DNA of 32,567 nt from a virus: positions 1 through 32,567 of IMG/VR virus record IMGVR_UViG_3300020187_000120. One strand, 5' to 3'. Within the stretch, counting starts at the first letter, position 1. The number at the start of each line of letters is the position of its first letter. The translations under genes and the position numbers were made by a program. This document shows positions 5,789-32,052 of this stretch, in pieces. The notes below the pieces were generated by a model that was not told where the DNA came from, did no database searches, and was given only the letters and a program-made list of their open reading frames with translations.

Positions 5789-6328
5789 ATGGACTATAAA
5801 CAGATAAAGAGTAGTAGATATTACAAGTTAAGATATGAGTATAAACAATATAAGAAAGAATATAATGAATTAGAATTTATATTTAATAAAATTTCAATTA
5901 AATTTACAGAAGCTGTTCAGGAGTTTTGCTTGTCGCACAATCTGAGTGATCCATTTACAAATAATGCAGTTAGACCTCAAAATGTCGGCGGCTTTGGTTC
6001 TTTAGAGACGAAGTCTCTTTATAGGTCATTAGCACTAAAGACTCACCCAGACAAGAAGACAGAAATAAAAGAGAAAGAAAGAATATTCAATGAAGCAACA
6101 AAGGCAAAGTCCTCAAACAATTTGCAAGAGTTGATTAATTTAAGTAAAGAGATTCAATGCGCGCCACAAGTAGATGAAATAACATTTGATCAATTAGATT
6201 TGCTTGAATTTAATTTGAATGAAATTAAGGAAAAAATAAATAATATAAAAACTAGTGCTGTGTGGTTATGGTTTTATTCTAATTCGACCAAAAGGGAGGA
6301 AGTTTTATTGAAATTTGTTGAGTTTTAA
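5789..6328 (+). CDS. J-domain protein (DnaJ-like), paralogue 1
   Basis: 179 aa. The segment LYRSLALKTHPDKKTEIKEK (about 78-97) carries the HPD tripeptide (86-88) between two helices, which in DnaJ/Hsp40 proteins stimulates the ATPase of Hsp70 (DnaK). There is an N-terminal Lys/Tyr-rich helix (1-50) and a C-terminal helical region ending in VWLWFYSN. There is no Gly/Phe region, zinc domain or substrate-binding domain, so it is a stand-alone J protein that would recruit host DnaK to a phage target. The same full-length architecture, including DPF/HPF before the J-domain and a C-terminal W-Y motif, recurs in the leftward gene at 31438-32052. ATG follows an A-rich stretch without a Shine-Dalgarno motif. 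Confidence 0.8.
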   Translation: MDYKQIKSSRYYKLRYEYKQYKKEYNELEFIFNKISIKFTEAVQEFCLSHNLSDPFTNNAVRPQNVGGFGSLETKSLYRSLALKTHPDKKTEIKEKERIFNEATKAKSSNNLQELINLSKEIQCAPQVDEITFDQLDLLEFNLNEIKEKINNIKTSAVWLWFYSNSTKREEVLLKFVEF

Positions 6329-6357
6329 TTTACAATTGTATTATAATTTTAACAAAA

Positions 6358-6385
6358 AACACGATTTCTATAGAAATTTCGTGTT
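6358..6385. terminator. Possible terminator hairpin after the J-domain gene
   Basis: Imperfect hairpin: AACACGATTTC, loop TATA, GAAATTTCGTGTT, with a 2-nt bulge. On the minus strand it is followed by a T run. On the plus strand the T-rich tail is a few bases away (GGAATTTT). It may act on both strands, weakly rightward. Confidence 0.45.
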
Positions 6386-6432
6386 GGAATTTTAGGATTA
6401 ATGATTTTATAATTAACTATATATTAAAATAA

Positions 6433-7149
6433 ATGCCAAGAAAAAATAAGCCTACCATAGAATTTGAACAGTTAGCTCCAGCTAAGATAGATATAAAAAG
6501 CTTATCTCTTACTGACAGGCAGAAATGCTTGCTTAAGATATCTCTATCAGAAGAAAATAAAATAACCTTCATATCGGGGCCCGCTGGGTCAACTAAAACT
6601 TTCATGGCTGTATACTCAGCATTAAGAAAATTAAAGAGGGATGAAAACTTGGATTTATTATATGTTCGCACAATTATAGAGAGTGCAGATAAAGGGTTGG
6701 GGGCTCTACCTGGAGATATTGGAGAAAAAACCAACCCATATATGGGACCATTAGATGACAAGCTTAGGGAATTAATTCCATCGGGAAGTGGAGTAGTCTC
6801 AGACTTAATAAAAAAGAAGAGAGTCCAAGCCATGCCTATAAACTTCTTAAGAGGAGCTAATTGGATTAATAAGATCGTAATAGCGGATGAGGCTCAAAAT
6901 TTTACATTTAAAGAATTGACGACATTAATGACAAGAATAGGTCATGGGACTCAACTTTTTATATGCGGCGACTACATGCAGAGCGATATTAACGGCAAGA
7001 GCGGTTTTAAGGAAATGTTTAACTTGTTTGATGATGAGTCTAGTAAGTCCAAAGGTATCGAGTGCTTCTCTTTTGGGCTCGACGATATCAAACGTAGTGC
7101 CATACTCTCTTTTATTATTAAAAAAATAACTAAAAACTTACCTAAATAA
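6433..7149 (+). CDS. phoH: PhoH-like ATPase
   Basis: 238 aa. P-loop GPAGSTKT (49-56), Walker B IVIADEAQN (148-156) and the following FICGDYMQSD (about 177-186) are the motifs of the PhoH family, ATPases related to superfamily 1 helicases and common in aquatic phages. Cellular PhoH proteins are linked to phosphate starvation and RNA processing; the role in phages is not settled. The usual Gly just before the P-loop Lys is Thr here (STKT for TGKT), so activity is not assured. The length matches the PhoH core domain without extra domains. ATG follows TATATTAAAATAA with no ribosome-binding site. Confidence 0.88.
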   Translation: MPRKNKPTIEFEQLAPAKIDIKSLSLTDRQKCLLKISLSEENKITFISGPAGSTKTFMAVYSALRKLKRDENLDLLYVRTIIESADKGLGALPGDIGEKTNPYMGPLDDKLRELIPSGSGVVSDLIKKKRVQAMPINFLRGANWINKIVIADEAQNFTFKELTTLMTRIGHGTQLFICGDYMQSDINGKSGFKEMFNLFDDESSKSKGIECFSFGLDDIKRSAILSFIIKKITKNLPK

Positions 7150-7164
7150 GTGTAATAACTCCTT
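7150..7164 (+). promoter_or_regulatory. GTGTA-box late promoter candidate
   Basis: GTGTAATAACTCC lies between the PhoH stop and the next ATG, with the box 15 nt before the start codon. It is part of the recurring GTGTA set described in the findings. Confidence 0.35.
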
Positions 7165-7599
7165 ATGTTAGGGAGTGTTATTAATACAGTAATAGGGGCG
7201 GGAATAAAAGTTGGGGCAAATTTATTAAATTTCTGGCTAGAGCAAAAAAAGCAAACTCAGTTAGCTTTAGTTGCAAGGGATAGTGAAATGCTTAAAGCTC
7301 TGATTGAGAATCAGAACAGAAGAGCAGATGATAATTTCGTAAAGACTACCAGGCGGGTACTTTTTATGTCTATCACATTCACAATGTGTTTTTTAATGAT
7401 ATATTATGCGATGAATCCCCATATCACATACGATGTCCTAATGCCAAAAGGGGAGGGATCTAAAATGGGCTTATGGGCTTGGGTTTCTGGTTCAAATGAT
7501 TGGGTTCAAGTAAAATTAACCGGAGGATTAATGCTAACATCCTTTATGGACTTATGTTTTATGGTTGTAGGGTTTTATGCCATTCCTTCAAAAAAGTAA
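7165..7599 (+). CDS. Two-TM membrane protein (possible holin)
   Basis: 144 aa. The N-terminus (1-25) is an amphipathic hydrophobic helix with GAGIKVGANLL, followed by a charged helix (26-62). Two TM segments are seen, about 65-83 (VLFMSITFTMCFLMIYYAM) and 119-140. The stop overlaps the next start in TAATG, so it is coupled to the lipoprotein gene. Small multi-TM protein plus lipoprotein is the usual layout of a holin/spanin lysis pair, but no endolysin is seen nearby and I do not recognise a holin family. It could instead be a tail or membrane-remodelling protein. Confidence 0.6.
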   Translation: MLGSVINTVIGAGIKVGANLLNFWLEQKKQTQLALVARDSEMLKALIENQNRRADDNFVKTTRRVLFMSITFTMCFLMIYYAMNPHITYDVLMPKGEGSKMGLWAWVSGSNDWVQVKLTGGLMLTSFMDLCFMVVGFYAIPSKK

Positions 7600-8489: not shown

Positions 8490-8493
8490 GGAA

Positions 8494-9240: not shown

Positions 9241-9241
9241 T

Positions 9242-12200
9242 ATGTCAGTAATTGCAGATCCACCAGACGGAGATAGCGGAGCTCCAGAGAAGTATTTTTT
9301 ACTTAAATCCTTACAGAAGTCAAACGTAGGCTCTAGAGACTCTGACGGAAGTGTTAAGGAATTTTTTGATGCTGCGGACATAGGAGTCGTGCAATCCTCG
9401 GCTCTACTTCAAGGCTTAAATGAAGACGAATTTAAGAAAGGTTCAGTGGAGCCCAATCAGCCATACATTGCCTTTATAAACACCGGACGATTTGAAACAA
9501 CCGGCAGGGGGGCAGATTCTGTTCAATGGAACGCAGGCTCTTCGAATAGAGAGACAGAAGAGAATTTTGCTAATGCTGTTATTGCGAAAGTATCAACAAA
9601 AATTGCGTTCTGGAGAGGGTTGGGGAATCAATTAGGTAGTGTCTCTAATTTTGTTGGATCATTCGCGACATCGGCCCAAGCACAACCCTACTTTCAGGCT
9701 ATTATTGATGGTAAGACTTATACAGAAAGTTCTACTGGAGCGGACACTAATTTAATTTATCCTTATGGCCTGAATGTTATTGATGCTATCAATAAAATAT
9801 ATGGCCCGACCAAGAACTCTCAAGAAGAGGTACTATCAAAGCAGTTAGGCAGTTTGAGCTCTGTAGTTTTAAAAGCTGAATCTTTAGAAGATAAAATAGT
9901 AAGAACTATCGGCCCAATTTTTTCCACAACGATAGTTAATGACTTTAAGGATTTAGTGGGTCAAGAGCATATACTTTCTGGCATTATGCAGAACTTTATG
10001 CTTATCAAGCAGGTAACTGGGGAGCTTTCAGTTATAAGTTTCTCTGGAATGCCTGACACTCCAACGGGGTATGATGAAGGAAAGTTTTTAAGATCAACAG
10101 CGACGGGTATAGAGTACGTTGATATAAGCGGACAAGTTCCTGTTAGTTTTCTTGATGATATCATAGATAAGCCTACAACTGAGGTGGTGGGTGGATATTT
10201 AAAGCTTGACACCGACGGAAAACTGGTATGGTCTCCAGCTACTACTAACGGGGATATAGCTTACACAATCACAGGAGCGACTCATATCTCTGGATTACTT
10301 GATACTCCAGATGGATACGATGAAGGTAAATTTTTAAGGTCAACAAGCAATGGAGTCGAGTACGTTGATATAAGCGGACAAGTTCCTGTTAGTTTTCTTG
10401 ACGATATCATAGATAAGCCTACAACCGAGGTGGTGGGTGGATATTTAAAGCTTGACACCGACGGAAAACTAGTATGGTCTCCAGCTACTACTAACGGGGA
10501 TATAGCTTACACAATCACAGGAGCGACTCATATCTCTGGATTACTTGATACTCCAGATGGATACGATGAAGGTAAATTTTTAAGGTCAACAAGCAATGGA
10601 GTCGAGTACGTTGATATAAGCGGACAGATCTCTTCTCAGCAAATTAACTGGATAGCTTACCCCTTAGTTTCAGATCTGCCGTCAGCTTCTGAGCATCATG
10701 GAATGTTTGCTCATGTCCATGGCGAAGGTTCAGCATACATGGCTCATGCTGGATCTTGGAATAAAATATACCCAGCCTCTGAGTCCGAAAATATTAATTC
10801 GCTCACAGGGTTATCTGACACTCCCGCTGTATACGAAAGCGGTAAATACTTAGTTTCAACTGAGACTGGGATTGAGTATCGGGATATTGATTTAGGGACA
10901 ACTTCGCTCACAGGACTTTCGTTTACTGGATTTTCTGACACTCCCGCTGTATATGAAAGCGGTAAATACTTAGTTTCAACTGAGACTGGGGTTGAGTATC
11001 GGGATAGAGAATATTTAGGTAAAGATATACCTGTTTATCCAAATAGCTATAACGACACCGACTCGCTACCACCAGACCCACAGAACCGCGATGGGGAATT
11101 GGTTAAAGTTGGATGTGAACTCTATTTATCTTGCAACGGAAAATGGATAAATACGACCAGTGAAAACTTAAGTGTTACTTCTCAACTGCCAGGCTGCATA
11201 AACAATCTAGAGGAGGCTGTGCAGTATTCAGAATATAAAGATAAATTCTTGGCTGAGAATAGCTCCGATTCTTTTGCCGCAGGGTTTGACGGAGGCATAG
11301 AACCTCTAGTGATAGATGTATGCATGCATATAGACTCCAATAATAGCATTTATGACTCTGACCATAGTTTAAAAATTGTAGAAACAAGCTACAAGTGGGG
11401 AATATTTAAAAACCCTCAAGCTATAAATATCGAAGCTTTAACATCTAATCAAAATTGTACTTTTTCACAATGGACCTCTAGTTCCGCAGCGTTTGAAGAT
11501 CAAAACAATTCACACACATCATTGTTGATAGATACTGACACTTCAATTACTGGAAGTTTCTTCTGTTTTGGCTCGATAGATGAGCCAGTATGTGAAGATA
11601 TTGCACTGCATTTACAACCCGCCGTAGGAGAAACTATCGCTGACGAAAGCAGCAACAATCATCAAATAACAATACAAGGCAATGCAACCGTAGACAACAC
11701 GGCTACATTGTTTGGCGGTGGCACAATGAATTTTGATGGCGCTGGGGATTATTTGAGTGTTGCTCATTCAGATTTATTCAACTTTGGGTCTGATGACTTC
11801 ACAATAGAAATGTGGATCAATTTTAATTCTCAACCAGCCTTTGATTCGGTGGTAATGTCTCATGGTGATTCTGGCACTAACTCTAACGATTGGGGCTGGA
11901 TGTTTTGGTCAACAGGACCAAATAATCTTTCCTTCTTTTCTTCGTTAGTAGGAGAAGGGAGCAATTGGTCGGGAAGTGTTCCAATGATGGATTCAATTAA
12001 TTTACATCAATGGTATCATATAGCAATCGTTAAAAAATCTGGTACGGTTTATACATATGTTGATGGCGTACTTCAAAATCAAAGATCACATAGTGCTTCG
12101 ATTAAAAATGTAACCCAGAATTTGATCATAGGCAGGAGTCACTGGTCCAATCGGTCGGCGGAGTTTGATGGCTATTTTCAAGATATTCGCATTAGTAAAA

Positions 12201-12265
12201 AAGCATTATACACAGAAGACTTCGCTCCGCCAAGTAATTTATTCACTAAGCCTTGCCCTAAATAA
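9242..12265 (+). CDS. Tail fibre with DTP repeats, InlB-like module and LamG tip
   Basis: 1007 aa. Residues 1-265 form a unique N-terminus likely to attach the fibre. Residues about 270-590 hold repeats of the motif DTPxxYDEGKFLRST..GxEYVDISG. Two 82-residue units are encoded by almost identical 246-bp DNA. At about 597-645 comes a VGCELYLSCNGKW segment shared with the next two genes, then an InlB B-repeat-like part (about 715-777, SQWTSS...SITGSF). The C-terminus (about 786-1003) is LamG/concanavalin-like, with FDGAGDYLSVAHSD, FTIEMWINF, WYHIAIVKKSG and YVDGVLQNQ. LamG folds bind carbohydrate or protein, so this is probably a receptor-binding tip. Confidence 0.8.
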   Translation: MSVIADPPDGDSGAPEKYFLLKSLQKSNVGSRDSDGSVKEFFDAADIGVVQSSALLQGLNEDEFKKGSVEPNQPYIAFINTGRFETTGRGADSVQWNAGSSNRETEENFANAVIAKVSTKIAFWRGLGNQLGSVSNFVGSFATSAQAQPYFQAIIDGKTYTESSTGADTNLIYPYGLNVIDAINKIYGPTKNSQEEVLSKQLGSLSSVVLKAESLEDKIVRTIGPIFSTTIVNDFKDLVGQEHILSGIMQNFMLIKQVTGELSVISFSGMPDTPTGYDEGKFLRSTATGIEYVDISGQVPVSFLDDIIDKPTTEVVGGYLKLDTDGKLVWSPATTNGDIAYTITGATHISGLLDTPDGYDEGKFLRSTSNGVEYVDISGQVPVSFLDDIIDKPTTEVVGGYLKLDTDGKLVWSPATTNGDIAYTITGATHISGLLDTPDGYDEGKFLRSTSNGVEYVDISGQISSQQINWIAYPLVSDLPSASEHHGMFAHVHGEGSAYMAHAGSWNKIYPASESENINSLTGLSDTPAVYESGKYLVSTETGIEYRDIDLGTTSLTGLSFTGFSDTPAVYESGKYLVSTETGVEYRDREYLGKDIPVYPNSYNDTDSLPPDPQNRDGELVKVGCELYLSCNGKWINTTSENLSVTSQLPGCINNLEEAVQYSEYKDKFLAENSSDSFAAGFDGGIEPLVIDVCMHIDSNNSIYDSDHSLKIVETSYKWGIFKNPQAINIEALTSNQNCTFSQWTSSSAAFEDQNNSHTSLLIDTDTSITGSFFCFGSIDEPVCEDIALHLQPAVGETIADESSNNHQITIQGNATVDNTATLFGGGTMNFDGAGDYLSVAHSDLFNFGSDDFTIEMWINFNSQPAFDSVVMSHGDSGTNSNDWGWMFWSTGPNNLSFFSSLVGEGSNWSGSVPMMDSINLHQWYHIAIVKKSGTVYTYVDGVLQNQRSHSASIKNVTQNLIIGRSHWSNRSAEFDGYFQDIRISKKALYTEDFAPPSNLFTKPCPK
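10114..10605 (+). repeat. Two tandem 246-bp coding repeats
   Basis: Units at 10114-10359 and 10360-10605 differ at only a few bases in the stretches compared, all seen at third codon positions. A partial third unit follows. Another diverged copy begins near 12424 in the next gene. Near-identity at silent sites means recent duplication or gene conversion. Confidence 0.85.
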
Positions 12266-12278
12266 TTGCATTTAAAAT

Positions 12279-15200: not shown

Positions 15201-15494
15201 TCAGGAAGATCAACAGGATATACATTCTGGATAAACGGAAAAAAAGCTGGAGAATGGGGCTCGTATATTCAGAGAAATGTGTCAGGCGAATCTTGTGTAG
15301 GTCAAATTAATGGAGTTGTTGATATGGGTGGATATACTTTAGGTACAACTTTACATGAGGTTATAGGAGCCAACTCAAGTCTTTCTTATATCGGACTCTT
15401 AGGTAGCCTTAAAGAGATTAGAATTATAAAAGGTAAATCTATATACAACGCAGATTTTACCCCACCAGCTTTAATAGAAAATTTATGCGAATAA
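12279..15494 (+). CDS. Tail fibre paralogue with three LamG-like domains
   Basis: 1071 aa. Residues 24-207 carry DTP repeats sharing long identical stretches with 9242-12265. About 217-394 is the shared VGCDLYVSCDGQW and InlB-like module (SFVRWDGVGAVFGDP...AITAYF). Three LamG/concanavalin-like domains follow: about 400-607 (FTFQFRLTQ, ISIDGVEFDW), 617-820 (LSLSFWFYWDGS, MYVDGIPVP) and 834-1068 (YTIEFLVKTD, WNHVAITYDG, FWINGKKAG). The long N-terminal attachment region of the previous fibre is missing, so this protein may assemble onto it. Probably a host-receptor-binding fibre with multivalent tip. Confidence 0.8.
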   Translation: MTNSTKTSMSGFFEMGKHIKNNLNFSGLQDTPMGYDEGKFLRSTDNGLEYVDISGKVPVSFLGDIVDKPTAEVLGGYLKLDNVGKLVWSPATTDGDIAYTITGATHITGLLDTPAGYDEGKFLRSTSNGIEYVDISGQVPVTFEEIIGTPDQYQSGKYLVSTETGIEYRDIDLAASSFIELSDTPRDYDDGKYLASTANGLEWVDATTTEGGDDTSVVPEVYDNINSLPLAINQDGAIVRVGCDLYVSCDGQWRPLVESGQEQLPVSTIPGCIKNINELTLYQAYKDEFIADNSLDSFEAGFDQTFQSLIYDVCLYTEDPANIVKIDETTYKWGIFKDTTVVNISATPQQVSDGSVSFVRWDGVGAVFGDPLDANTTLTVDKDLAITAYFTRLYTAARCADVLLFIDATKSIKDLSLENSEIISEVPVDRDSDGLHFGRGGNFTRYSAGEYTKATIPSYLFGNSKTFTFQFRLTQAGSDGFSMAIGNNEHYVVLRIMYDKFVMHIGDPGTWGSNIGTGIVPVIGKWYDITMRYGSRYDQIAISIDGVEFDWATKADSLGSSGSGSMSTIDATSYLAINSTFGGDSSVNADYKNIKIFEGQAADISSIDPASTSVPEGCTSLLFSSLNGSGNDDGNLTFAPVVPHSRIMTEMDSGKSAVFTGGDRSYIDTQLNLHDLTNLSLSFWFYWDGSTDGAVVGSINNDGALTSCRQQVQFRSSDSKITYTSRQGDLASYTFSLPDGWHHFAVTDNNSTAASDAVNMYVDGIPVPYSVLVSGGNYSTNTNMQIGRTRKSDGGIGRWLSAKLDDLRIYSDILTPTEIQYISRNDRPNIPTDNLTAYYKFDGNVNDQSELYDGTPHSITYTESAHFSFGDQLLLTDKPFASLGTEAYTIEFLVKTDEFQTTGGGGVIFSSHWEGEHGGCTGSAQYWSISIGGTGLVNFDFRDTGNTHASSIPIVLGVWNHVAITYDGSIGVGESGRSTGYTFWINGKKAGEWGSYIQRNVSGESCVGQINGVVDMGGYTLGTTLHEVIGANSSLSYIGLLGSLKEIRIIKGKSIYNADFTPPALIENLCE

Positions 15495-15495
15495 T

Positions 15496-19518: not shown

Positions 19519-19857
19519 ATGTTATCTACCTATTGTCAGGAATGCGGAAGTAAGAACGAATATATATCAAAGAAGCCTAAATACTGTTCTGAGTGTGGGG
19601 AGCCTCTGGGTGTACAGGATCAGAAAAAAGATGAAGCCCCGCCTGTTAAGGCTATATCCAGATCTCAAGATTCGCCTAGCTTAGACCTGGATGAGGAAGG
19701 TCTGGATATTTACGAGGTTCCCAGTTTAGATAAACTCGATTATGAAATAGAAATCGCTGGTAGTTCAAATTCCTTCAGCTTAGGTCAATTAATGGGAAGT
19801 TCTGAAGCTCGACATCAAGAAGTAAAGCCTAAGAGGGGTAGACCTAAAAAGAAATGA
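19519..19857 (+). CDS. Zinc-ribbon and AT-hook protein
   Basis: 112 aa. CQECGSKNEYISKKPKYCSECG (6-27) is a CxxC-x12-CxxC zinc ribbon. An acidic, disordered centre (about 55-80) follows. The C-terminal KPKRGRPKKK is an AT-hook with the GRP core, which binds the minor groove of A/T-rich DNA. The combination suggests a DNA-binding accessory protein for transcription or packaging. It overlaps the sigma factor gene by 4 nt (ATGA), so they may work together. Function otherwise unknown. Confidence 0.72.
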   Translation: MLSTYCQECGSKNEYISKKPKYCSECGEPLGVQDQKKDEAPPVKAISRSQDSPSLDLDEEGLDIYEVPSLDKLDYEIEIAGSSNSFSLGQLMGSSEARHQEVKPKRGRPKKK

Positions 19858-22550: not shown

Positions 22551-22566
22551 CTAAGAGTAATTTATT

Positions 22567-24426
22567 ATGGCATGGATTGAGGGAAATCAACAAAGAAAAA
22601 CAAAAGAGGATATCAATAAAGAGATATTAGCTATCGAGGGCTTTATGGAGGATGATGAAGCTAAGGACTACTTATTTAAATTCTTAAGGGAAAATATAAC
22701 TTTTACCACGAGTTTGATTGGGGGAGTGGATTTATTTCCTTTTCAACATATGGCGATCAAGGCTATGTTTGAGACCGATTATTTTATGGGAGTCTGGAGT
22801 CGAGGAATGTCTAAATCGTTCACAACTGGAGTCTATGCATTTCTGGATGCCATACTGAATCAGGGTGTCGAGATTGGAATTTTAGCTGCATCGTTTAGGC
22901 AGTCGAAACAAATTTTTAAAAAAATCGAAGACATTGCTGCGAAGCCGGAGGCTCAAATGTTAGCAAAATGCATTACTAAGAAATCTAAAAGCAATGATGA
23001 ATGGTTGATGGAGATAGGCAGGAGTAGGATTAGGGCATTACCTTTAGGGGACGGATCTAAACTTCGAGGATTTAGGTTTCACAGGATTATTATTGATGAG
23101 TTCTTACTGATGCCTGAACGTATCTATAACGAGGTTATTGTTCCGTTTCTTTCTGTAGTGGAGAATCCAACTCAGCGGGAAAATTTGCATAACTTAGAAA
23201 CAAAATTAATAGATCAGGGCAAAATGAATGAGGATGAAAGGCATTTATGGCCTAATAATAAATTGATAATGTTGTCCTCGGCTAGCTATAAATTCGAATA
23301 CATGTACAAGCTGTACAGTCAGTTTAACAGTTTAATCAACAAGCAGACAGATAAAGCTACGAGATGCATTATGCAATTCTCTTACGATTGTGCCCCAGGT
23401 CAACTTTACGACCAAAATCTACTAACTCAAGCCAAAGCTACAATGAGTCAGTCTCAGTTTGAAAGAGAGTTTGGTGCATTATTTACAGACGACAGTTCTG
23501 GGTATTTTAAAACTTCCAGAATGGCTGCATGTACAATAAAAGATGGAGATGATCCTCATGTGGAAATTAAAGGTCAGCCTGAAGATGAATATATATTAGC
23601 TTTTGACCCATCTTGGTCTGAGAGTGAAAGTAGTGATGATTTCGCTATACAGGTATTGAAGTACAACAAATCTAACGGAACTGCAACTTTAGTTCATTCG
23701 TATGCCATGCCCGGTACGGCTTTAAGGGATCATATTTTTTATTTCCATTATTTAATTAAGAATTTTAATATTGTTTGTATAGTTGGAGATTATAATGGGG
23801 GTGTTCAGTTCATTAGTGCCGTTAACGAAAGCCAGCTCTTCAAATCTTCGAATATAAAATTAAAAACAATTGACGGAGAATTTGATAAGATGGATTCGTA
23901 TAAGGATGAGCTTAGAGTGGCTAAAGGGCAATATAATAAAAAAGATTATAAGTATTTAATACTCAGGAAGCCTAGCTCAGATTGGATCAGAAGAGCTAAC
24001 GAGTTACTTCAATCTAATTTCGACCACAAGAGGATATGGTTTGGGTCAAGAGCTCTAGAGGACTCTTATAATAAGCAAAGAGCTAAAAAGATCCCTATAG
24101 GCAAGCTGAAGTTTATTAGGCTTGCTGACGATGTAGATAAGCAAAGTGACGGAGCTAAAATGATAGACTTCATAGAGCACCAGTACGACATGATTAACTT
24201 AACTAAGAACCAGTGTGCATTAATACAGATAACTACATCTCCTCAGGGAACTCAAACGTTCGGGCTCCCACAGGAATTGAGGAGGCAGTCTGGCCCTGAT
24301 AAAGCAAGAAAAGACTCGTACTCCGCCTTAATTCTGGGAAGCTGGATGACTAAGATATTTTATGACATGAACAATATTCAGCATCAGCAAATCCAGGGAA
24401 CATTCTCTCCGATGTTCATAGGTTGA
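22567..24426 (+). CDS. terL: Terminase large subunit
   Basis: 619 aa. N-terminal ATPase: SRGMSKSFTTG (78-88) as Walker A, with the R-G-x-x-K-S layout of terminases and Ser in place of the usual Gly before Lys. IIIDEF (174-179) is Walker B with catalytic Glu, and LIMLSSASY (233-241) is coupling motif III. C-terminal RNase H-fold nuclease: LAFDPSWS (345-352) and IVGDYNGG (405-412) supply metal-binding Asp residues. It pumps DNA into the prohead through the portal encoded next and cuts it. Full family length. The neighbour order nuclease-terL-portal-protease-capsid is typical of tailed phages. Confidence 0.92.
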   Translation: MAWIEGNQQRKTKEDINKEILAIEGFMEDDEAKDYLFKFLRENITFTTSLIGGVDLFPFQHMAIKAMFETDYFMGVWSRGMSKSFTTGVYAFLDAILNQGVEIGILAASFRQSKQIFKKIEDIAAKPEAQMLAKCITKKSKSNDEWLMEIGRSRIRALPLGDGSKLRGFRFHRIIIDEFLLMPERIYNEVIVPFLSVVENPTQRENLHNLETKLIDQGKMNEDERHLWPNNKLIMLSSASYKFEYMYKLYSQFNSLINKQTDKATRCIMQFSYDCAPGQLYDQNLLTQAKATMSQSQFEREFGALFTDDSSGYFKTSRMAACTIKDGDDPHVEIKGQPEDEYILAFDPSWSESESSDDFAIQVLKYNKSNGTATLVHSYAMPGTALRDHIFYFHYLIKNFNIVCIVGDYNGGVQFISAVNESQLFKSSNIKLKTIDGEFDKMDSYKDELRVAKGQYNKKDYKYLILRKPSSDWIRRANELLQSNFDHKRIWFGSRALEDSYNKQRAKKIPIGKLKFIRLADDVDKQSDGAKMIDFIEHQYDMINLTKNQCALIQITTSPQGTQTFGLPQELRRQSGPDKARKDSYSALILGSWMTKIFYDMNNIQHQQIQGTFSPMFIG

Positions 24427-24483
24427 AAAGTTAACTTTAACTTTTATAGACTTTTACTTTAACTTTGTGTAATATAAAGAGTG
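24427..24483 (+). promoter_or_regulatory. Intergenic stem-loop and GTGTA-box before the portal gene
   Basis: An A/T-only stem AAAAGTTAA-CT-TTAACTTTT begins within the terL stop codon. GTGTAATATAAAG at 24467 lies 17 nt before the portal ATG. The first may be a weak terminator or RNA-processing site and the second a late promoter. Confidence 0.42.
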
Positions 24484-26526
24484 ATGAAGAAAAGAAAATA
24501 CAATAAGAGCTCTAAGTATTGGGACAAGTTCAATAATCAGGATAGACCAATAGAGGAAATACTCAATAGTATGGGGGCCGACGATTCACTTCCGGCCACT
24601 GCTGGAGGTAGTTTTTATGTAGGAACATCTCATGCCAGCCAAGGTAGAGCCGCCGCATATAGCGGGAATACAGCTTCAAGGAGAAATTCCGTACATTATT
24701 CAGAGAAAAAATATCAGTATAACAATATAGCTCAAGGAATGTTGCCCTATAATTACGGCAAAGGTAATGGGGTGGATGTCAGGGAAGCTATAGAGCTTTG
24801 TCAGAAGGCTTATGCTAACATAGCGATATTTAGAAACGCTATAGACATAATGGCTGAATTTTCGAACTCGCCAATCTACCTAGAGGGAGAGAATGATAAG
24901 TCTAAGAAATTTGTAGAAAATTGGATGAAGAAAATCGGGGTATGGAAATTGAAAGATCAATATTTCAGGGAGTATTATAGATCGGGGAATGTATTCCTTT
25001 ATAGAATAGATGGAAAATTTTCAACAGATGATTTGTTAAAGTTAAATTATGTATATGCTTCGGAGAGTTTAATGGCTGGAGAAATGCCAGTCAAGTATAT
25101 TCTGCTCAACCCTTACGATATAGTAGCAGACAGATCTACCTCCTTCAGGGAAGGTTCGTACAAGAAAATTTTGTCTGAATACGAACTGGAAAAACTCAGG
25201 GATCCTAAGACAGATGAAGACAGGAAGGTTTTAGAATCTTTAGACAAGGACACTAGGGAGAAAATAGAAACAGGCTCATATACTGCCGAAGGCTTGGATG
25301 TCAAGCTCAATCCGAAGAAGTTGGTTTATTCATTTTACAAGAAGCAAGATTACGAGCCATTCGCTATACCTTTTGGTTTTCCTGTACTGGAGGATATAAA
25401 CTGGAAACTTGAGTTAAAGAAGATTGATCAGGCTATATGTAGGACGGTGGAGAATGTGATTCTTTTGATTACTATGGGGGCGGAGCCTGAAAAAGGGGGG
25501 ATCAATCCACAGAATTTAAAAGCAATGCAGGAACTATTCAAGAACGAGAGTGTGGGTAGAGCATTAATTGCGGATTATACAACTAAGGCTCAGTTTGTAA
25601 TTCCAGACCTAAATAAAGTATTAGGTTCGGAGAAATATAAAATCGTTAACGAGGATATCAAAGAAGGGTTGCAGAATGTAATAGTGGGTAGTGAGAAATT
25701 TTCTAATACACAAATTAAGGCTGAGATATTCCTGGAAAGATTAAAAGAGTCTAGAAATGCATTTTTGAATGACTTTTTGCAGCCTCAAATTAAGGAGGTC
25801 TGCGAGAATATGGGCTTAAAGAATTATCCAGTTGCTAAATTTGAAGAGATAGATATTAAGGATGAAGTTCAGTTTCATAGGGTTATCACCAGATTACTAG
25901 AGATAGGAATACTTACTCCAGAGCAAGGAATTAAATCTATGCAGACTGGAATATATCCAGACCCTAAAGATTTACCTAAGGTTCAGGATGAGTATATAAG
26001 TCAAAGAGAGAAAGGGTTTTACAATCCTCTTGTAGGAGGAATACCTATGATAGAGGGAGTTCAGTCTCAGAAGGACAGAGCTCTCAAGAAGCAGGAAATG
26101 AAGCAGTCTGAGAATGAGCAGAGCCAACCTCAGAATACAGAGAATGTAAATAAGACTCCGAAATCCGCAGGAAGGCCTGGTGGAACTACCAACATTCCAG
26201 TTAACGCATCTAAGGGTTATGATAAGAAGTTAATTCAAAAAACAATATATGATATAGAGGAATTACAATTATATGCAGAAGCTAGTTTCATTAAGAATAA
26301 AAAAATTGAAAATATCAGCGAGCCCCAGAAGGAGTTAATTGTGAAGCTTTGTGAGTCTGTAGTTTGTGCTAAGGATAGACAACAATGGAAAAGAACTTTA
26401 TTGAGCTGCATAAAGAATGTTAATAATATAGAAAAGCTGACAACAATTGATGGCATCGTTGAAATAGGGTCCGAGCATGAACTGAGTGAATATCCTGCTG
26501 CAATATTATATCATAGTAAAAAATAA
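24484..26526 (+). CDS. Portal protein
   Basis: 680 aa from the ATG; a GTG one codon earlier is possible. The core (about 85-500) has portal features: IAIFRNAIDIMAEFSNSPIY, then WKLKDQYFREYYRSGNVFLY, a long helix-rich stem and LNDFLQPQIKEVCENMGL. Residues about 540-600 are Gln/Glu/Asn-rich and likely disordered. The C-terminal 80 residues (KKLIQKTIYDIEELQLYAEA...) form a separate helical extension. It forms the dodecameric head vertex and DNA channel and docks the terminase. Identification rests on position between terL and the protease plus these patterns. Confidence 0.85.
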   Translation: MKKRKYNKSSKYWDKFNNQDRPIEEILNSMGADDSLPATAGGSFYVGTSHASQGRAAAYSGNTASRRNSVHYSEKKYQYNNIAQGMLPYNYGKGNGVDVREAIELCQKAYANIAIFRNAIDIMAEFSNSPIYLEGENDKSKKFVENWMKKIGVWKLKDQYFREYYRSGNVFLYRIDGKFSTDDLLKLNYVYASESLMAGEMPVKYILLNPYDIVADRSTSFREGSYKKILSEYELEKLRDPKTDEDRKVLESLDKDTREKIETGSYTAEGLDVKLNPKKLVYSFYKKQDYEPFAIPFGFPVLEDINWKLELKKIDQAICRTVENVILLITMGAEPEKGGINPQNLKAMQELFKNESVGRALIADYTTKAQFVIPDLNKVLGSEKYKIVNEDIKEGLQNVIVGSEKFSNTQIKAEIFLERLKESRNAFLNDFLQPQIKEVCENMGLKNYPVAKFEEIDIKDEVQFHRVITRLLEIGILTPEQGIKSMQTGIYPDPKDLPKVQDEYISQREKGFYNPLVGGIPMIEGVQSQKDRALKKQEMKQSENEQSQPQNTENVNKTPKSAGRPGGTTNIPVNASKGYDKKLIQKTIYDIEELQLYAEASFIKNKKIENISEPQKELIVKLCESVVCAKDRQQWKRTLLSCIKNVNNIEKLTTIDGIVEIGSEHELSEYPAAILYHSKK

Positions 26527-26533
26527 ATATTAA

Positions 26534-26551
26534 GTGTACTTATATGAGTAA
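26534..26551 (+). promoter_or_regulatory. GTGTA-box late promoter candidate
   Basis: GTGTACTTATATG begins 18 nt before the ATG of the protease-scaffold gene, in a 25-nt gap. Confidence 0.4.
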
Positions 26552-28150
26552 ATGAATAAACAATTTAAATATACCACAAAATTTTCAGATTTAAGTTTAG
26601 CCTCTGAGGATATTAACGACTCTAGGCTCAATATTAGTGAAGCATCTCTAGACTCATTAAAGTCTATGATTCCAGGAGATGTAGACCTAGAAAAAAACCT
26701 CGACTTACTTGGGGTTGCATTTAATGCGGCTGTTGTAAATAAATTTAATAAGAACGGAGATGGAATTAGTTCTTCATCTGCAGTAGATATACTAGACCAA
26801 TTTAAGCATAAGCCTACAAACATTGAGCATAAAAAAGAAAAAGTTGTTGGGCATATTGTGTCTGCATTATTCTCTAGGTTTGAGACAAACGAAATAATGG
26901 ATACAGAAGAAGCTTTAGCGACGGAAGGGTCGTTTAATATTTCTCTTGCTGCATTAATTTACAAAAGTGTTAATTCGGAATTCGCTAATTTAGTTGAAGA
27001 GTCTATGGATCCTGAGAGTCCTTTATACAATAAAGTCTCAGCAAGTTGGGAGATTGGGTTCAATGACTATGTCCTAGCTGTTGGCAATGATGATTTATCT
27101 GAATCAGTAATCATTGATGATGAAGAAAAGATCGAAGAATTAAAAAATAATTTAAAAGCTTATGGCGGAACAGGATTTCTAGAGGATGGGTCTACAATAA
27201 ACAGGCTTATTATTGGAGAAATTTTCCCGCTAGGCATAGGATTCACATCCAATCCAGCTGCTGAAGTAAAGGGAATCACTAGGAGTTCGTCCAAGAACGA
27301 AGAGTCTGTAATAGACCAAGGCGAGAAATCTTATAATGGTGATAAGGATTATGATTATGGATCCGACAACGAAGTTGAAAATAAAAAAAATAAAAAAAAT
27401 ATTTCACAAATGAATGAATCTGATGTAATTAACAAAAAACGTACTACTATGGAAAACAACGAAATTTTAAACAATCTGGTATCAGCTCTTGAAGATAAAG
27501 TGTCTAACAAGAAATTCTCTGAAGAAGCTGTCGCTACCGTATCTAAAATTATTAACGACGCAATCTTGGAAAAGAATACTTCATTCCTTCAAGAAAAAGA
27601 TAAACTTGAGACCGAGAAGGCTGAGTTGGCAAAAGCTGCAGAAGATAATGCTGCCGAAGTTGCTCAACTAAGAAGCGAGCTTGATTCAGCTGTGTCTAAG
27701 GTAAATGATTTAGAGCAAACTCAAAGACAACAGGAAGCTGTCGCAACTTTTGACTCTAGAATGTCAGCCGTCGAGGAGATTTACTCCTTGGATGAGGCTA
27801 GTCGTAAAGTAGTAGCTCTTGAGCTTAAGGATTTAGCTTTAGAAGATGAAGCTTTTGCAACTTTTCAAGAGAAACTCGAGGTGGTATTAAAACACCAAAA
27901 TAAGCAATTCATTGCTCAGCAAGAAGAAGAATTTAATACTAAACTCGCAGAAGCTGTTGAGAAAAGAATTTCAGAACTTAAGAATGTTGATTCCTCCGAG
28001 GATCAAGTTTTAGAAGAAGCCTTAGACAATGTCGAGGCAGAAACTGAAGTCATCGCAAATAATAATGCTGACTCATCAAAAGCAGAAGAGTCATTGAGCG
28101 AAAAGTTCAAGAAAGCTTTTTCTGAAGACAATTTAACCATAAACTACTAA
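26552..28150 (+). CDS. Prohead protease fused to scaffold
   Basis: 532 aa in two parts. Residues 1-245 match phage prohead serine proteases in pattern: NGDGISSSSAVDILDQF, then PTNIEHKKEKVVGHIVS with probable catalytic H93, and KVSASWEIGF with S163/S165 as nucleophile candidates. After a charged, low-complexity linker (about 245-290, with poly-A coding runs), residues 300-532 are an Ala/Glu/Lys-rich coiled coil as expected for a scaffold. The protease frees the capsid of scaffold before DNA packaging. In-frame ATG codons at 27410 and 27449 could give scaffold alone. Position before decoration and capsid genes agrees. Confidence 0.82.
   Translation: MNKQFKYTTKFSDLSLASEDINDSRLNISEASLDSLKSMIPGDVDLEKNLDLLGVAFNAAVVNKFNKNGDGISSSSAVDILDQFKHKPTNIEHKKEKVVGHIVSALFSRFETNEIMDTEEALATEGSFNISLAALIYKSVNSEFANLVEESMDPESPLYNKVSASWEIGFNDYVLAVGNDDLSESVIIDDEEKIEELKNNLKAYGGTGFLEDGSTINRLIIGEIFPLGIGFTSNPAAEVKGITRSSSKNEESVIDQGEKSYNGDKDYDYGSDNEVENKKNKKNISQMNESDVINKKRTTMENNEILNNLVSALEDKVSNKKFSEEAVATVSKIINDAILEKNTSFLQEKDKLETEKAELAKAAEDNAAEVAQLRSELDSAVSKVNDLEQTQRQQEAVATFDSRMSAVEEIYSLDEASRKVVALELKDLALEDEAFATFQEKLEVVLKHQNKQFIAQQEEEFNTKLAEAVEKRISELKNVDSSEDQVLEEALDNVEAETEVIANNNADSSKAEESLSEKFKKAFSEDNLTINY
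27449..28150 (+). CDS. Possible nested scaffold start
   Basis: In-frame ATG (codon 300 of the fusion) starting MENNEILNNLVSALEDK, with a second candidate at 27410. It begins exactly where the coiled coil begins and where codon choice shifts to that of the capsid genes. The A-rich run before 27410 suits initiation in this genome. Phage lambda makes its scaffold (Nu3) from a start inside the protease gene C in this way. This is inference; the sequence cannot show that initiation happens. Confidence 0.38.
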   Translation: MENNEILNNLVSALEDKVSNKKFSEEAVATVSKIINDAILEKNTSFLQEKDKLETEKAELAKAAEDNAAEVAQLRSELDSAVSKVNDLEQTQRQQEAVATFDSRMSAVEEIYSLDEASRKVVALELKDLALEDEAFATFQEKLEVVLKHQNKQFIAQQEEEFNTKLAEAVEKRISELKNVDSSEDQVLEEALDNVEAETEVIANNNADSSKAEESLSEKFKKAFSEDNLTINY

Positions 28151-28171
28151 AAATAAAAGGAATAAAATACC

Positions 28172-28867
28172 ATGGCTATTAGACTATTACCGTTTCGCGA
28201 CTACAACGAACATGATGTTGTAAATTTGTACAGAAGTGCAGGAAATCTGGGTGACTTTATTGATCTCTCTGATTCCACAAAAAGATCCACTCCCGAAGGG
28301 GATGCTGGAGTATTTGTTAAAGTCTCCAATGGAGTCTTAAACTCATCAGCTACCGATTGGGATCCAGTCGATGTAGAGTCTAACCCTGCTAGCTTGCTGG
28401 GTAAAACTGATTATCCTCACGTTGGTAGAAATACTTATCCTACGGTAGCCCTTAGTGTTACTGGAGTAAATAGTAATTCAGATCAATGCATTGGAGTTAC
28501 TCTTAGACAAACTGTTGCTAGAGATGAGTTGGGAGAAAACCTTCTTTATAATCCAATTAAAAAAGATGAACTTTACGGAGTGCTTCCTGGCGAAGCTGTT
28601 CCGGTTCTTTCAAGAGGATTAGTAACTTTAACTTCTGATGCTTTTGATGGCACACCAGCGGTTGGTGAAGCTCTTGTTCCTTCCACTTTAGGAAAGGCTT
28701 CAGGAATTGCTTACGGATCGCTAAGTGCTAGCGATAATAATATCGGAACAGTTCTAGCTGAAGGCTTTAGAGATGATTACACTAACTCCGCTGGCGGAAC
28801 CAATGTTTTTGGAAATCAAGGTCTTCAAAGCGGAAACTATTACGTAGTAAAACTTAACTGTGCATAA
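28172..28867 (+). CDS. Head decoration/stabilisation protein (putative)
   Basis: 231 aa, Gly/Ser/Val-rich and beta-dominated, starting MAIRLLPFRDYNEHDVVNLY. It contains GVFVKVSNGVL, VGRNTYPTVALSVTG and a region CIGVTLRQTVARDELGEN. This arrangement and its place between scaffold and major capsid genes match phage head decoration proteins, which clamp the expanded capsid. A AAGGA sequence 11 nt upstream of ATG is one of the few ribosome-binding-like sites in the window, and codon use looks biased, as expected for a product needed in many copies. Confidence 0.68.
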   Translation: MAIRLLPFRDYNEHDVVNLYRSAGNLGDFIDLSDSTKRSTPEGDAGVFVKVSNGVLNSSATDWDPVDVESNPASLLGKTDYPHVGRNTYPTVALSVTGVNSNSDQCIGVTLRQTVARDELGENLLYNPIKKDELYGVLPGEAVPVLSRGLVTLTSDAFDGTPAVGEALVPSTLGKASGIAYGSLSASDNNIGTVLAEGFRDDYTNSAGGTNVFGNQGLQSGNYYVVKLNCA

Positions 28868-28893
28868 TTTAATAAAAAAGAGAAATATTTAAA

Positions 28894-30048
28894 ATGAAAA
28901 TTACATTAAAGAGAACCGAAGAACAAGTAGAACTTGTAAAAGCCATGGCATCAAAGGACAGAAATGTCGCTTATGAAGCTCAAATGGCTCTAGCTCAATT
29001 CATTGGGCCTGTGCTTGCTAAAGTTATTAACCAAGCTCCGACATTAAGCAATTTGTTTTCAAATTTTGCTTTTAGTGCGGACGAAAGCCCAAGCATTCCA
29101 ATGGACTTGTACTACGACATTACTGATGAAGATTATGTAACTGTTTGGAGTCAAGCGGTCCCAGGAGGCTTGCCAACTAACACAGTAACTCCTATTGGTG
29201 GAGAAATGAAATTTACAACCTATCGCCTTGATAGTGCTGTGGATTTTGATAAGCGATATGCCCAACGGTCTCGCATGGATGTTGTTAGTAAATCGTTCAC
29301 TCGAATTGCTCAAGAAATTTTACTTAAGCAGGAAAGAAACTCTGCAGCTCTTATTTTAGGTGCCCTTGCAGAAGCGGAAACTAAAGGAGTAAGTCATACA
29401 ATTAACTCTACTGGAGTTGGCGGTCTTGCAGATGCTACGACCGCTAGTTCGTCAAGGCTTATTCTTGACGACTTCAATCGTCTTTTAACCCTAGGCAAGC
29501 GTATCAATACTGCTTGGACTGGCGGAACAGCTGAAGGCGGAACTGGAGGTCGAGGAGTAACTGATCTTATTGTTTCTCCCGAAGTAGTTCAAGGTCTTCG
29601 AGAAATGTCTTATAATCCAATCAACACTAGAACTGTTGGTGGTGGTAATGACATTGCTGCAACTGACAGTATGCGTGAATCTATTTATAATAATGCTGGA
29701 ATTCCCGAGTTTTACGGAATTAACATTATGGAACTTCAAGAAATGGGTAAAGGCCAACGGTTTAATAAATTGTTTGCTGCTTCAGATGTTAGTACGACAA
29801 GAGTGAAAGGTGTCTCAGCAACTCGAGGTGCTTTTTCTGATACTTATCATGAGCTTGTTATTGGTTTAGATAAAAGGGTTGATTCTCTGCTTCGAGCAGT
29901 AGCATCGGATTCAGAAACTGGTTCCGAATTCTCTCTTATCGCTGATGATCAATACAGCGTTCGTCAATCCAAGATTGGTTACTTCGGTTCAATCGAAGAG
30001 GGTCGTATGATTTTAGACAATAGAGCCCTTTTCGGACTAATTTGTTAA
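28894..30048 (+). CDS. Major capsid protein
   Basis: 384 aa. N-terminal helix with MKITLKRTEEQVELVKAMAS, an E-loop/spine-like region (DLYYDITDEDYVTVWSQAVP), and a core with long helices and beta strands, ending ARRAVASDSE-like LLRAVASDSETGSEF. No signature short motif exists for HK97-fold capsid proteins, so the call rests on size, place directly after protease and decoration genes, biased codon use and a strong terminator right after the gene. An A-rich stretch precedes ATG with a GAGA-type weak ribosome-binding site. Confidence 0.82.
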   Translation: MKITLKRTEEQVELVKAMASKDRNVAYEAQMALAQFIGPVLAKVINQAPTLSNLFSNFAFSADESPSIPMDLYYDITDEDYVTVWSQAVPGGLPTNTVTPIGGEMKFTTYRLDSAVDFDKRYAQRSRMDVVSKSFTRIAQEILLKQERNSAALILGALAEAETKGVSHTINSTGVGGLADATTASSSRLILDDFNRLLTLGKRINTAWTGGTAEGGTGGRGVTDLIVSPEVVQGLREMSYNPINTRTVGGGNDIAATDSMRESIYNNAGIPEFYGINIMELQEMGKGQRFNKLFAASDVSTTRVKGVSATRGAFSDTYHELVIGLDKRVDSLLRAVASDSETGSEFSLIADDQYSVRQSKIGYFGSIEEGRMILDNRALFGLIC

Positions 30049-30079
30049 GTGTAGATTTCCTTAACCAGAGATCTTTATC

Positions 30080-30107: not shown

Positions 30108-30127
30108 GTTTATATAAGTTATTATAT

Positions 30128-30156
30128 GTGTACTAAACTTTAAATACGGATACATT
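30128..30156 (+). promoter_or_regulatory. GTGTA-box late promoter candidate
   Basis: GTGTACTAAACTTTAAATACGG follows the terminator and precedes the 30157 gene by 29 nt, further than in the other cases. A new promoter is expected here because the capsid terminator lies just upstream. Confidence 0.42.
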
Positions 30157-30534
30157 ATGACCACAAGAAAAAAAACAACAAAAAAAACTATCAAGAAAAC
30201 ACCTAAAGAATATGCTGACGGAAAAGAAGATCGAAAAACTAGAGCTAAAACTGTAGAAGAGCTAATGAAGGTGAATACTCGGGATCCATTTAGGACAGCT
30301 ACTGGAGAAGATTTTGAAGATGCAGTAACCGGAATGAACCTATCTCAACTTCAGGAGATCGCTGTACAGGCTGGAGTTTTTCCGTCTGGAACAAAAGCAA
30401 CATTAAAAAACAAGCTTCTCAAGGAGTATCAAAATAAAACACAAGGAGTATATGGAGCCAGTTCTTCATCGAAGCCCGCTGTTGATCCAAAATCGAAAAG
30501 AGCGGCAGACATTATAAAATTACTGAATGAGTAA
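30157..30534 (+). CDS. Lys-rich protein with SAP-like helix pair
   Basis: 125 aa. A very basic N-terminus (TTRKKTTKKTIKKTPKEYAD) is followed by NLSQLQEIAVQAGVFPSGTKA and TLKNKLLKEY (about 60-90). This is the helix-extended-helix pattern of SAP or Rho N-terminal domains, which bind nucleic acid. A Ser-rich linker leads to a C-terminal helix. It follows the capsid terminator. It may bind packaged DNA or act in head completion; that is inference. The stop overlaps the next start (TAATG). Confidence 0.6.
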   Translation: MTTRKKTTKKTIKKTPKEYADGKEDRKTRAKTVEELMKVNTRDPFRTATGEDFEDAVTGMNLSQLQEIAVQAGVFPSGTKATLKNKLLKEYQNKTQGVYGASSSSKPAVDPKSKRAADIIKLLNE

Positions 30535-31430
30535 TGAATCAATTAGGAGAGCTAGCTTACAACATATGGGATATTGAGTTTGGGGATCATTCCTCAGCTT
30601 TAGAGCGAGAAAGAAATGCCCTCCTAATTTCTGGATATCTTGATGTAAATTTAGGACAGTTAAATGTTCTTGTTAATACAGATTTTTGTCTGGATGTAGA
30701 AAAAGATAAAGTCTCTCCAGTTTTAGGTAAGGAGGAAAAGGCTATACTTACTCAACTATATTTAAAGGACTATCTTCAAAAGCAGTCCAGAAATGTATTA
30801 AGGAACGCCACTAGCGAGTCTTCAACCTCAACTCAATCTTCTGTTGGTGAATGGATAGAGCTTCGAGAAGGAGACACTACCATAAAAAGATCTATAGTTA
30901 GTGCTTCTACTCGAAATACTTCCGCAAAACTGTTGTCAGACTCCTCCAAGGAGGCTTCTAAGCTTTTAGAGAAATTAATACATTCTTACAACATGTACGG
31001 AGCAAGCCCGCTTCAAGTCGCTGGTGATGATGCAAATATCCAAATGACAGAAAGCGAGGTTCTTGATTTATTAATGATGGAGGAGAGTAAGAATGCTAAG
31101 AGGATAAATCAATTAGAATTCAAGCTGAATGCTACCGATGCTGAAATTAGTGATGTTAAATCTAAAATCAAAAGTCAGAAGATATCGGGATTTGCGAAGA
31201 CTTTCGTACTTCCTGCGGGCTCTGATGAGATATTTATTAACTGGTCTAGCGATTATAGCCCAACCACTCCACCCACAGTATTAATAGCTATGAGAAGTAG
31301 AAGCGATCAGGACCCAATTATTGCTCACAGAATAGAAGGAGCTCCTTCTGTGTACGGTGTGAATGTAGTGTTTTCTTCAAAGGTTCCAAACATGAATTAC
31401 TCTTTAGAGGTTTGTGCTTTTATAATATAA
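30534..31430 (+). CDS. Coiled-coil virion protein with beta-rich tip domain
   Basis: 298 aa. Residues 1-180 are helical (LLKNATSESS-type linkers between helices). About 180-215 is a heptad segment (ESKNAKRINQLEFKLNATDAEI). The C-terminal 85 residues (FAKTFVLPAGSDEIFINWSSDYSP ... DPIIAH ... VVFSSKVPNMNYSLEVCAF) form a beta sandwich. The tip is homologous to the end of the leftward fibre gene at 32116-32567: both keep F/Y-S..P.V, DPII and a final FS..PN.NY.LEV.A. H-type lectin-like domains have this layout. Probably a head fibre, neck or tail fibre that binds host glycans. Confidence 0.6.
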   Translation: MNQLGELAYNIWDIEFGDHSSALERERNALLISGYLDVNLGQLNVLVNTDFCLDVEKDKVSPVLGKEEKAILTQLYLKDYLQKQSRNVLRNATSESSTSTQSSVGEWIELREGDTTIKRSIVSASTRNTSAKLLSDSSKEASKLLEKLIHSYNMYGASPLQVAGDDANIQMTESEVLDLLMMEESKNAKRINQLEFKLNATDAEISDVKSKIKSQKISGFAKTFVLPAGSDEIFINWSSDYSPTTPPTVLIAMRSRSDQDPIIAHRIEGAPSVYGVNVVFSSKVPNMNYSLEVCAFII

Positions 31431-31437
31431 TTGCATT

Positions 31438-32052
31438 TTATTTATCTAAGTTATTTTCGTTTTTTGTCAATTGAGCAAATATACTTTCTTGAGCTTCGCT
31501 ATCTTCGTAATACCATCTGTACATAATATCACTCTTAGCTTTACTTATTTTACTTTCGAGTATTAGTATCTCCCCTTCAATAACCTCCAGAAGCTCTGAG
31601 TTGATTCCATCAATCTCGATATCAAGCTCAAGAGCTACTTTTAAGATAGCATTAAGGTCCCCAGAGCTCTTTCCCTCGCTGGCCTCATGGTATAGGTCAG
31701 ATCGACTTCTAGACTCCTCCTCGGTTAACTCTAGGGTTTTATCTGGATGAGTTTTTTTGACTATCTCTCTATATAAATCTTTAATTTGTTCATTATCTAT
31801 GGAATCTTTCTTTGTCGGGTCTCGTGATGCATTTTCAAATGGGTGCATTATGTTTTTGCTTGAGCAATATTTAAGCATTTCGGAAATGAACACCTCCTTG
31901 GCATGTTTGAATACTTCAGAAACTTCTTCGTTCTCCATATTCAAATAACTAATCTTGTGTTTTAATTTCTTAAACTTTCTCGAAAGCATTTCCTGTTGAG
32001 GTTCTGGAAGAGCTTTAGATATCTTGTTGTTAAGTTTTTTAGGCTTTTTCAT
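31438..32052 (-). CDS. J-domain protein (DnaJ-like), paralogue 2
   Basis: 204 aa from the ATG at 32052. An upstream in-frame ATG at 32082 would start inside the terminator hairpin and is rejected. LYREIVKKTHPDKTLELTEE (about 93-112) contains HPD (102-104). Basic N-terminal helix 1-35, HPF before the J-domain (70-72), and a C-terminal helical part with SDIMYRWYYED. The whole length parallels the J protein at 5789-6328. Should stimulate host DnaK for an unknown client. It is encoded leftward, convergent with the virion block, as its own unit after a terminator. Confidence 0.8.
   Translation of the reverse strand: MKKPKKLNNKISKALPEPQQEMLSRKFKKLKHKISYLNMENEEVSEVFKHAKEVFISEMLKYCSSKNIMHPFENASRDPTKKDSIDNEQIKDLYREIVKKTHPDKTLELTEEESRSRSDLYHEASEGKSSGDLNAILKVALELDIEIDGINSELLEVIEGEILILESKISKAKSDIMYRWYYEDSEAQESIFAQLTKNENNLDK

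What the first reader, a model, noticed from the sequence alone, without database searches (positions are those of the whole stretch)
5789..32052. Two diverged J-domain paralogues flank the virion block on opposite strands
Both have HPD J-domains inside the same full-length architecture with matching N-terminal helix, P-F turn before the J-domain and a C-terminal W-Y motif. Neither has normal DnaJ client domains. Two dedicated DnaK recruiters suggest capsid or fibre assembly, or replication complexes, need host Hsp70, with separate timing (rightward operon versus a separate leftward unit).
Basis: partly seen in the sequence, partly recalled or inferred. Interest (0 to 1): 0.66.

Follow-up and report, generated by a model that had tools for sequence, protein, structure and literature searches.

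The report
Two phage J-domain co-chaperones, differently timed
An uncultured marine virus of bacteria carries two distantly related small proteins with the signature that lets them recruit the cell's Hsp70 folding machine; one has the same start signal as the capsid genes and the other does not, so the virus probably uses the host chaperone at two different stages of infection.

Summary
J1 (5789-6328 +) and J2 (31438-32052 -) are real, diverged paralogues (E = 6e-22) with the same architecture: a long N-terminal helix, a helix-HPD-helix J hairpin, and a helical tail with an invariant W. Their family profile hits only J-domain proteins in the PDB. Sampling that does not depend on the motif shows H and D in 22 of 22 relatives and P in 21 of 22. 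Canonical helix I is not recognisable, and there are no DnaJ client domains. The family is wide in large phages, including cultured Erwinia jumbo phages. Four of 24 family-bearing records encode their own Hsp70. The window's group encodes none, so host DnaK would be the partner. J1 and J2 form two sister clades. Most large contigs of this phage group keep one; the window and two relatives keep both. J2 sits behind a conserved terminator and carries the GTGTA start element found before portal and scaffold genes. J1 never carries it and lies beside PhoH or, in relatives, ribonucleotide reductase. The 'separate timing' idea is therefore supported. The client proteins and DnaK binding are not shown. 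Phage J-proteins are already known (Rki of RB43; jumbo phages), so this is a new variant of a known kind.

The parts
5789..6328 (+). J1: 179 aa J-domain protein, HPD at residues 86-88
   Evidence: orthologues upstream of PhoH in G007, G008, L200, L203, L204, L285
31438..32052 (-). J2: 204 aa J-domain protein, HPD at residues 102-104
   Evidence: orthologues at the same convergent place in 13 or more relatives
32058..32066 (-). GTGTA-type 5' element of J2, 14 nt before the ATG (GTGTACATA)
   Evidence: present before 12 of 13 J2 orthologues
32072..32093 (-). intrinsic-terminator hairpin between the fibre gene and J2, conserved with compensatory changes
32116..32475 (-). fibre-like protein with C-terminal H-lectin-like domain, upstream of J2 on the same strand
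   Evidence: weak H_lectin match, E 0.029; same neighbour in relatives
6433..7149 (+). PhoH-like ATPase, downstream neighbour of J1
   Evidence: phrog_170, 2e-57
22567..30048 (+). virion block between J1 and J2: terminase, putative portal, putative protease/scaffold, decoration-like protein, putative major capsid protein
   Evidence: terminase by match; the other names from order and size, not tested

Best explanation
J1 and J2 are atypical class C (type III) J-domain co-chaperones that recruit the host's DnaK through a helix II-HPD-helix III hairpin and present their own clients through the helical arms on either side. They descend from one phage J gene that split before this phage group diversified. 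J2 is expressed as a late gene with the capsid genes and most likely serves virion (tail or fibre) assembly. J1 is under a different, non-late control and most likely acts earlier, around DNA precursor supply, replication or host takeover. Shown: homology, motif conservation, selection, gene order, the different 5' signals. Inferred: DnaK binding, timing, clients.
For: All 40 PDB sequences matched by the family profile at E<=0.01 are J-domain proteins, best 7e-7. In 22 representatives under 85% identity found without using HPD, the helix II Arg and T, H, D of THPD are invariant and P is 21/22, against a mean column conservation of 0.48. AlphaFold models are confident (pLDDT 88.9 and 84.6) and place HPD in the loop between a 14-residue helix and a 15-20-residue helix. 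The nearest predicted viral structures are called 'J domain-containing protein'. dN/dS is 0.04-0.22. A full Hsp70 occurs in 4 of 24 family-bearing records and in all three megaphage records hit by the window proteins; none in 11 records of the window's group. J1 and J2 are clean sister clades (97/89). The GTGTA element is before J2 (12/13), portal (54/56) and scaffold (79/90), but J1 0/10 and early genes 0/43. J1-type genes of relatives adjoin the RNR small subunit.
Against: No binding or activity data. Helix I is not recognisable by sequence or in the models, and whole-model fold searches of the PDB give J domains only weak scores (Z 3.8 and 3.4). One J1 lineage carries HTD and is still under purifying selection. 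The J2 slot holds an unrelated 118-133 aa protein or glycosyltransferases in many relatives with the same capsid, so J2 is not essential to that capsid type. GTGTA as a promoter is inferred from position only.
Confidence: 0.58

Rival explanations
1. One or both are DnaK decoys or modulators rather than client-delivering co-chaperones: they occupy DnaK or displace host DnaJ to change host stress control or to escape DnaJ-dependent phage sensing, as Rki does with sigma-32.
For: Rki of RB43, the first characterised phage J-protein, is made early, is toxic through DnaK, is not a generic co-chaperone and stabilises sigma-32 (PMC3486835). Host DnaJ, with an intact J domain, is needed for bNACHT25 phage sensing (PMC12169576). 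J1 lacks the late element.
Against: Rki has a canonical N-terminal J domain and shares only the J hairpin with this family (6.4 bits). J2 shares the capsid genes' 5' signal, late for a takeover factor.
Confidence: 0.25
2. They are virion-assembly or structural helical proteins in which a J hairpin survives as a fold element and Hsp70 interaction is secondary or lost.
For: HTD lineage kept under selection; the W and the P-[FL] motif outside the J hairpin are as conserved as HPD; neighbours are often tail sheath, neck and fibre genes.
Against: T, H, D and the helix II Arg are invariant in all 22 diverse relatives and P in 21; some members sit beside DNA polymerase or translation genes instead.
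Confidence: 0.13
3. Chance HPD in unrelated helical proteins, not J domains.
For: Pfam scores just below cut-off; helix I missing.
Against: Profile hits exclusively J-domain chains in the PDB; hairpin geometry matches; homologues in other phages are auto-named J domain-containing.
Confidence: 0.03

Closest known systems
Rki (ORF057w) of Escherichia phage RB43
   Same: phage-encoded J-protein without DnaJ client domains; HPD-dependent partner of host DnaK proven for Rki (PMC3486835)
   Different: Rki has a complete J domain at its N terminus and an unrelated C-terminal region; made early; single copy; only the hairpin aligns
DNAJ-domain proteins noted in jumbo phages (group 2.2, PMC7824862) and moraphages (PMC12619734)
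   Same: J-domain co-chaperones predicted to recruit host or phage Hsp70 for assembly
   Different: those reports describe sporadic single genes or full DnaJ/DnaK pairs; not a family with two clades of different expression class in one phage
Hypothetical proteins of Erwinia phages Yoloswag (gp159) and Alexandra and Yersinia phage fHe-Yen9-02
   Same: cultured members of the same wide family (THPDK core, helical tail), full-length matches within that subgroup
   Different: lie between a DNA polymerase/exonuclease gene and a DHH phosphoesterase followed by tail sheath; single copy; annotated hypothetical
SV40-type T antigens (type III viral J-proteins)
   Same: virus-encoded J-domain used to hijack host Hsp70 (as reviewed in PMC3486835)
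   Different: J domain N-terminal in a multifunctional replication protein; eukaryotic virus; no sequence kinship tested

Membership tests
J-domain protein (Hsp40/DnaJ superfamily) | HPD motif between helix II and helix III | tested here: met
J-domain protein (Hsp40/DnaJ superfamily) | basic helix II (K..YR) that contacts Hsp70 | tested here: met
   helix II Arg invariant, Lys 20/22; contact itself not tested
J-domain protein (Hsp40/DnaJ superfamily) | compact four-helix domain with helix I before helix II | tested here: inconclusive
   Pfam match starts at profile position 12-17 of 63; segment before helix II is coil of low confidence; the long N-terminal helix could take helix I's place, not measured
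J-domain protein (Hsp40/DnaJ superfamily) | binds Hsp70 and stimulates its ATPase | not testable with these tools
   needs biochemistry
Class A/B DnaJ (type I/II) | G/F region, zinc finger or C-terminal client-binding domains | tested here: not met
   no such match in Pfam or NCBIfam
Class C (type III) J-protein | only the J domain shared with other J-proteins | tested here: met
Rki family | N-terminal full J domain plus Rki C-terminal region | tested here: not met
   only 37 profile positions of the hairpin align, 6.4 bits

The most novel reading that the evidence does not exclude
A phage that partitions host Hsp70 use in time with two subfunctionalised J-proteins: a non-late J1 for DNA precursor, replication or takeover complexes, and a late J2, insulated by its own terminator and late promoter, for tail or fibre assembly; both using a reduced J domain without helix I.
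Probability: 0.35. Interest if true: 0.62.

Novelty: new variant of a known kind. Interest (0 to 1): 0.42.

Why it matters
Only one phage J-protein (Rki) turned up with experimental characterisation in the papers searched, and it acts early on DnaK. Here is a family spread over phage records up to about 640 kb, in one abundant uncultured marine group in two clades with different start signals, some relatives carrying their own Hsp70. It makes 'what do phages want host Hsp70 for, and when?' testable, and cultured members exist (Yoloswag gp159). A J domain that seems to work without helix I would also bear on the minimal Hsp70-recruiting unit.

Tried and rejected
Single-protein scans of viral contigs found almost nothing; the alignment of both paralogues was needed. 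HPD invariance was set aside as biased, because the search pattern contained THPDK; it was re-tested with scans from the capsid protein, the membrane protein w7165 and the C-terminal half only and a profile search of the group's longer contigs. Foldseek and VIA against the PDB with whole models did not bring up J domains clearly; this says little, since long helices dominate. A conserved client from gene neighbourhood was sought and not found. A chromosomal origin was sought in genome contigs: only short matches around the THPDK core (19-63 query residues), nearly all in Nitrosopumilus-type archaea, not members by length. My first view that J2 is simply the last gene of the tail operon was corrected after the conserved terminator and GTGTA element were found. 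Generic sigma-70 scans gave no excess over shuffles.

Full report
What was checked. The window is a 32,567-base IMG/VR record classed as linear, so probably a fragment. J1 is 5789-6328 on the + strand (179 aa) and J2 is 31438-32052 on the - strand (204 aa). They are paralogues: 6e-22, 26% identity, 52% similar over 175 aa. Pfam DnaJ matches both only across helix II, HPD and helix III; a scan of the whole record finds these two places and no other. NCBIfam gives only partial matches, mostly to DnaJ-type chaperones.

A family. An alignment of the two paralogues brought in 25 loci from viral contigs, and a second round 58. The family has about 60 distinct members, on contigs from a few kb to 508 kb, and in uncultured megaphages of 635-642 kb. 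Members share a long N-terminal helix, a variable and often acidic linker, a core like [kr]x[LV][YF]R[ek]I[av]xxTHPDK, and a C-terminal part ending around W.W. Cultured members are hypothetical proteins of Erwinia, Dickeya and Yersinia jumbo phages. The A3 profile of this family, searched against every PDB chain, returned 40 sequences at E<=0.01 and every one is a J-domain protein.

Removing a bias. Those scans used a pattern containing THPDK, so HPD conservation in them is circular. Relatives were therefore collected through the major capsid protein, the small membrane protein 7165-7599, the C-terminal half of J1 only, and a profile search of whole records. In 22 representatives below 85% identity, the helix II Arg and T, H, D are invariant and P is 21 of 22; mean column conservation is 0.48. 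The exception is one lineage with HTD (L229/L306 and near-copies), also under purifying selection (dN/dS 0.05; other pairs 0.04-0.22).

Structure. AlphaFold models are confident (pLDDT 88.9 and 84.6). J1: helix 3-49, helix II 72-85, HPD 86-88, helix III 94-108, then helices 112-121, 133-154, 157-162 and 166-178. J2 follows the same plan. The stretch just before helix II is coil, so canonical helix I is not seen. Whole-model searches of the PDB do not single out J domains (Z 3.8 and 3.4 at best), while the search of predicted viral structures lists proteins named 'J domain-containing' among its best hits.

Two clades, one phage group. The capsid protein has no match among 50,697 phage records but 425 matching stretches in IMG/VR: an abundant uncultured group, with contigs up to 206 kb. 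Of nine contigs of at least 100 kb reached through the capsid or membrane protein, seven carry exactly one family member. The tree puts all group members in two sister clades, J1-type and J2-type (97/89). The window, G007 and G008 have one of each. So the split is older than the window's lineage, and most lineages keep one type. J1-type genes stand before PhoH in the window's clade and next to the ribonucleotide reductase small subunit elsewhere (PF00268, 2e-75). J2-type genes stand next to a fibre with an H-lectin-like end; in relatives lacking J2 that slot holds an unrelated 118-133 aa protein or glycosyltransferases.

Expression signals. In the longer relative G008, J2 lies at the downstream end of a leftward block that includes two fibre-like genes, sugar-transferase-like genes and proteins of 925, 2486 and 3832 aa. 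Between the fibre gene and J2 there is an intrinsic terminator whose stem changes on both sides among relatives (for example GACGGCCC/GGGCCGTC, GGCAGCCCC/GGGGCTGTC), followed at once by GTGTA and the J2 ATG. GTGTA[AT] occurs in 275 of 1,369 upstream windows of the group against 34 for its reverse complement and 11 inside genes, mostly 14-18 nt before the ATG. It precedes portal (54/56), scaffold/protease (79/90), PhoH (22/28), w7165 (45/62) and J2 (12/13), but none of the early leftward genes (0/43) and no J1 (0/10). I read it as a late promoter element giving very short leaders; that reading is inference. It does show that J1 and J2 belong to different 5'-signal classes.

Hsp70. Four of 24 family-bearing records encode a complete Hsp70 and some a full-length DnaJ, in one case directly beside the family gene. 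All three megaphages hit by the window proteins encode Hsp70, against 37 of 50,697 records; genome size confounds this. Eleven records of the window's group have none, so host DnaK would be the partner.

Mechanism. Most likely both proteins use the HPD hairpin to bring host DnaK to clients held by their helical arms (shown: hairpin, conservation, selection; inferred: binding and clients). J2 would act late, near tail and fibre assembly; J1 earlier, near nucleotide supply or takeover. The Rki precedent (PMC3486835) means a decoy role acting on DnaK is a live rival. Neighbours of the wider family (tail sheath, head-tail adaptor, glycosyltransferases, several DNA polymerases, IF-3) do not point to one client.

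Known or new. Phage J-proteins and the idea that they recruit host Hsp70 for assembly are published (PMC3486835, PMC7824862, PMC12619734). New here are the reduced-J architecture as a wide phage family, its two clades, and their different start signals in one phage.

Noticed in passing
window 7879, 8494, 18888, 24481, 26552, 30157, 32052 (upstream of each) and group contigs: GTGTA[AT] element 14-18 nt before the ATG of putative late genes (275 of 1369 upstream windows against 34 for the reverse complement); no -35 box and few G downstream; a sigma factor gene (19854-20573) lies in the same block. Putative late promoter of an uncultured phage group.
   Followed up: partly
window 702-4899, - strand: Most of the leftward small genes have their own similar promoter-like TTGAC(A/T)..TATAT ending a few bases before the ATG: an array of single-gene units with very short leaders.
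   Followed up: no
L229:6639-7181 and L306:4813-5340: J1-type lineage with HTD in place of HPD, still under purifying selection.
   Followed up: partly
L018:9695-11406 (IMGVR 3300009181_000033): Family gene convergent with and directly beside a full-length DnaJ (358 aa, with zinc-finger region) in a 298 kb phage contig.
   Followed up: no
G027, G020, G015, G030: Large phage contigs that encode a complete Hsp70 (623-642 aa) as well as a family member.
   Followed up: partly
L026:6102-6599 and L026:7084-7701: Phage contig with translation initiation factor IF-3 (PF05198, 1.6e-25) and a gene that reads like peptide deformylase beside the J gene.
   Followed up: no
window 30534-31430 and 32116-32475: The two genes on either side of J2 share a C-terminal H-lectin-like domain; in several relatives the 30534 homologue is about 170 aa and lacks it, suggesting domain exchange across J2.
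   Followed up: no
L123:8122-8505, L135:7274-7672, L139:8101-8466, L142:8143-8535: In relatives without J2 the same slot holds a different 118-133 aa helical protein of unknown function; possible non-homologous replacement.
   Followed up: no
window 9242-18809: Four large fibre-like proteins, at least three with a repeated module (DTP.GY..GK(F/Y)L.ST..G.EY.D), and one LamG-like domain by match; the number of such genes differs widely between relatives (none in G007, many in G008).
   Followed up: no
window 28894-30048: Putative major capsid protein with 425 matching stretches in IMG/VR and none in 50,697 phage records: a common phage group without a cultured member in that collection.
   Followed up: partly
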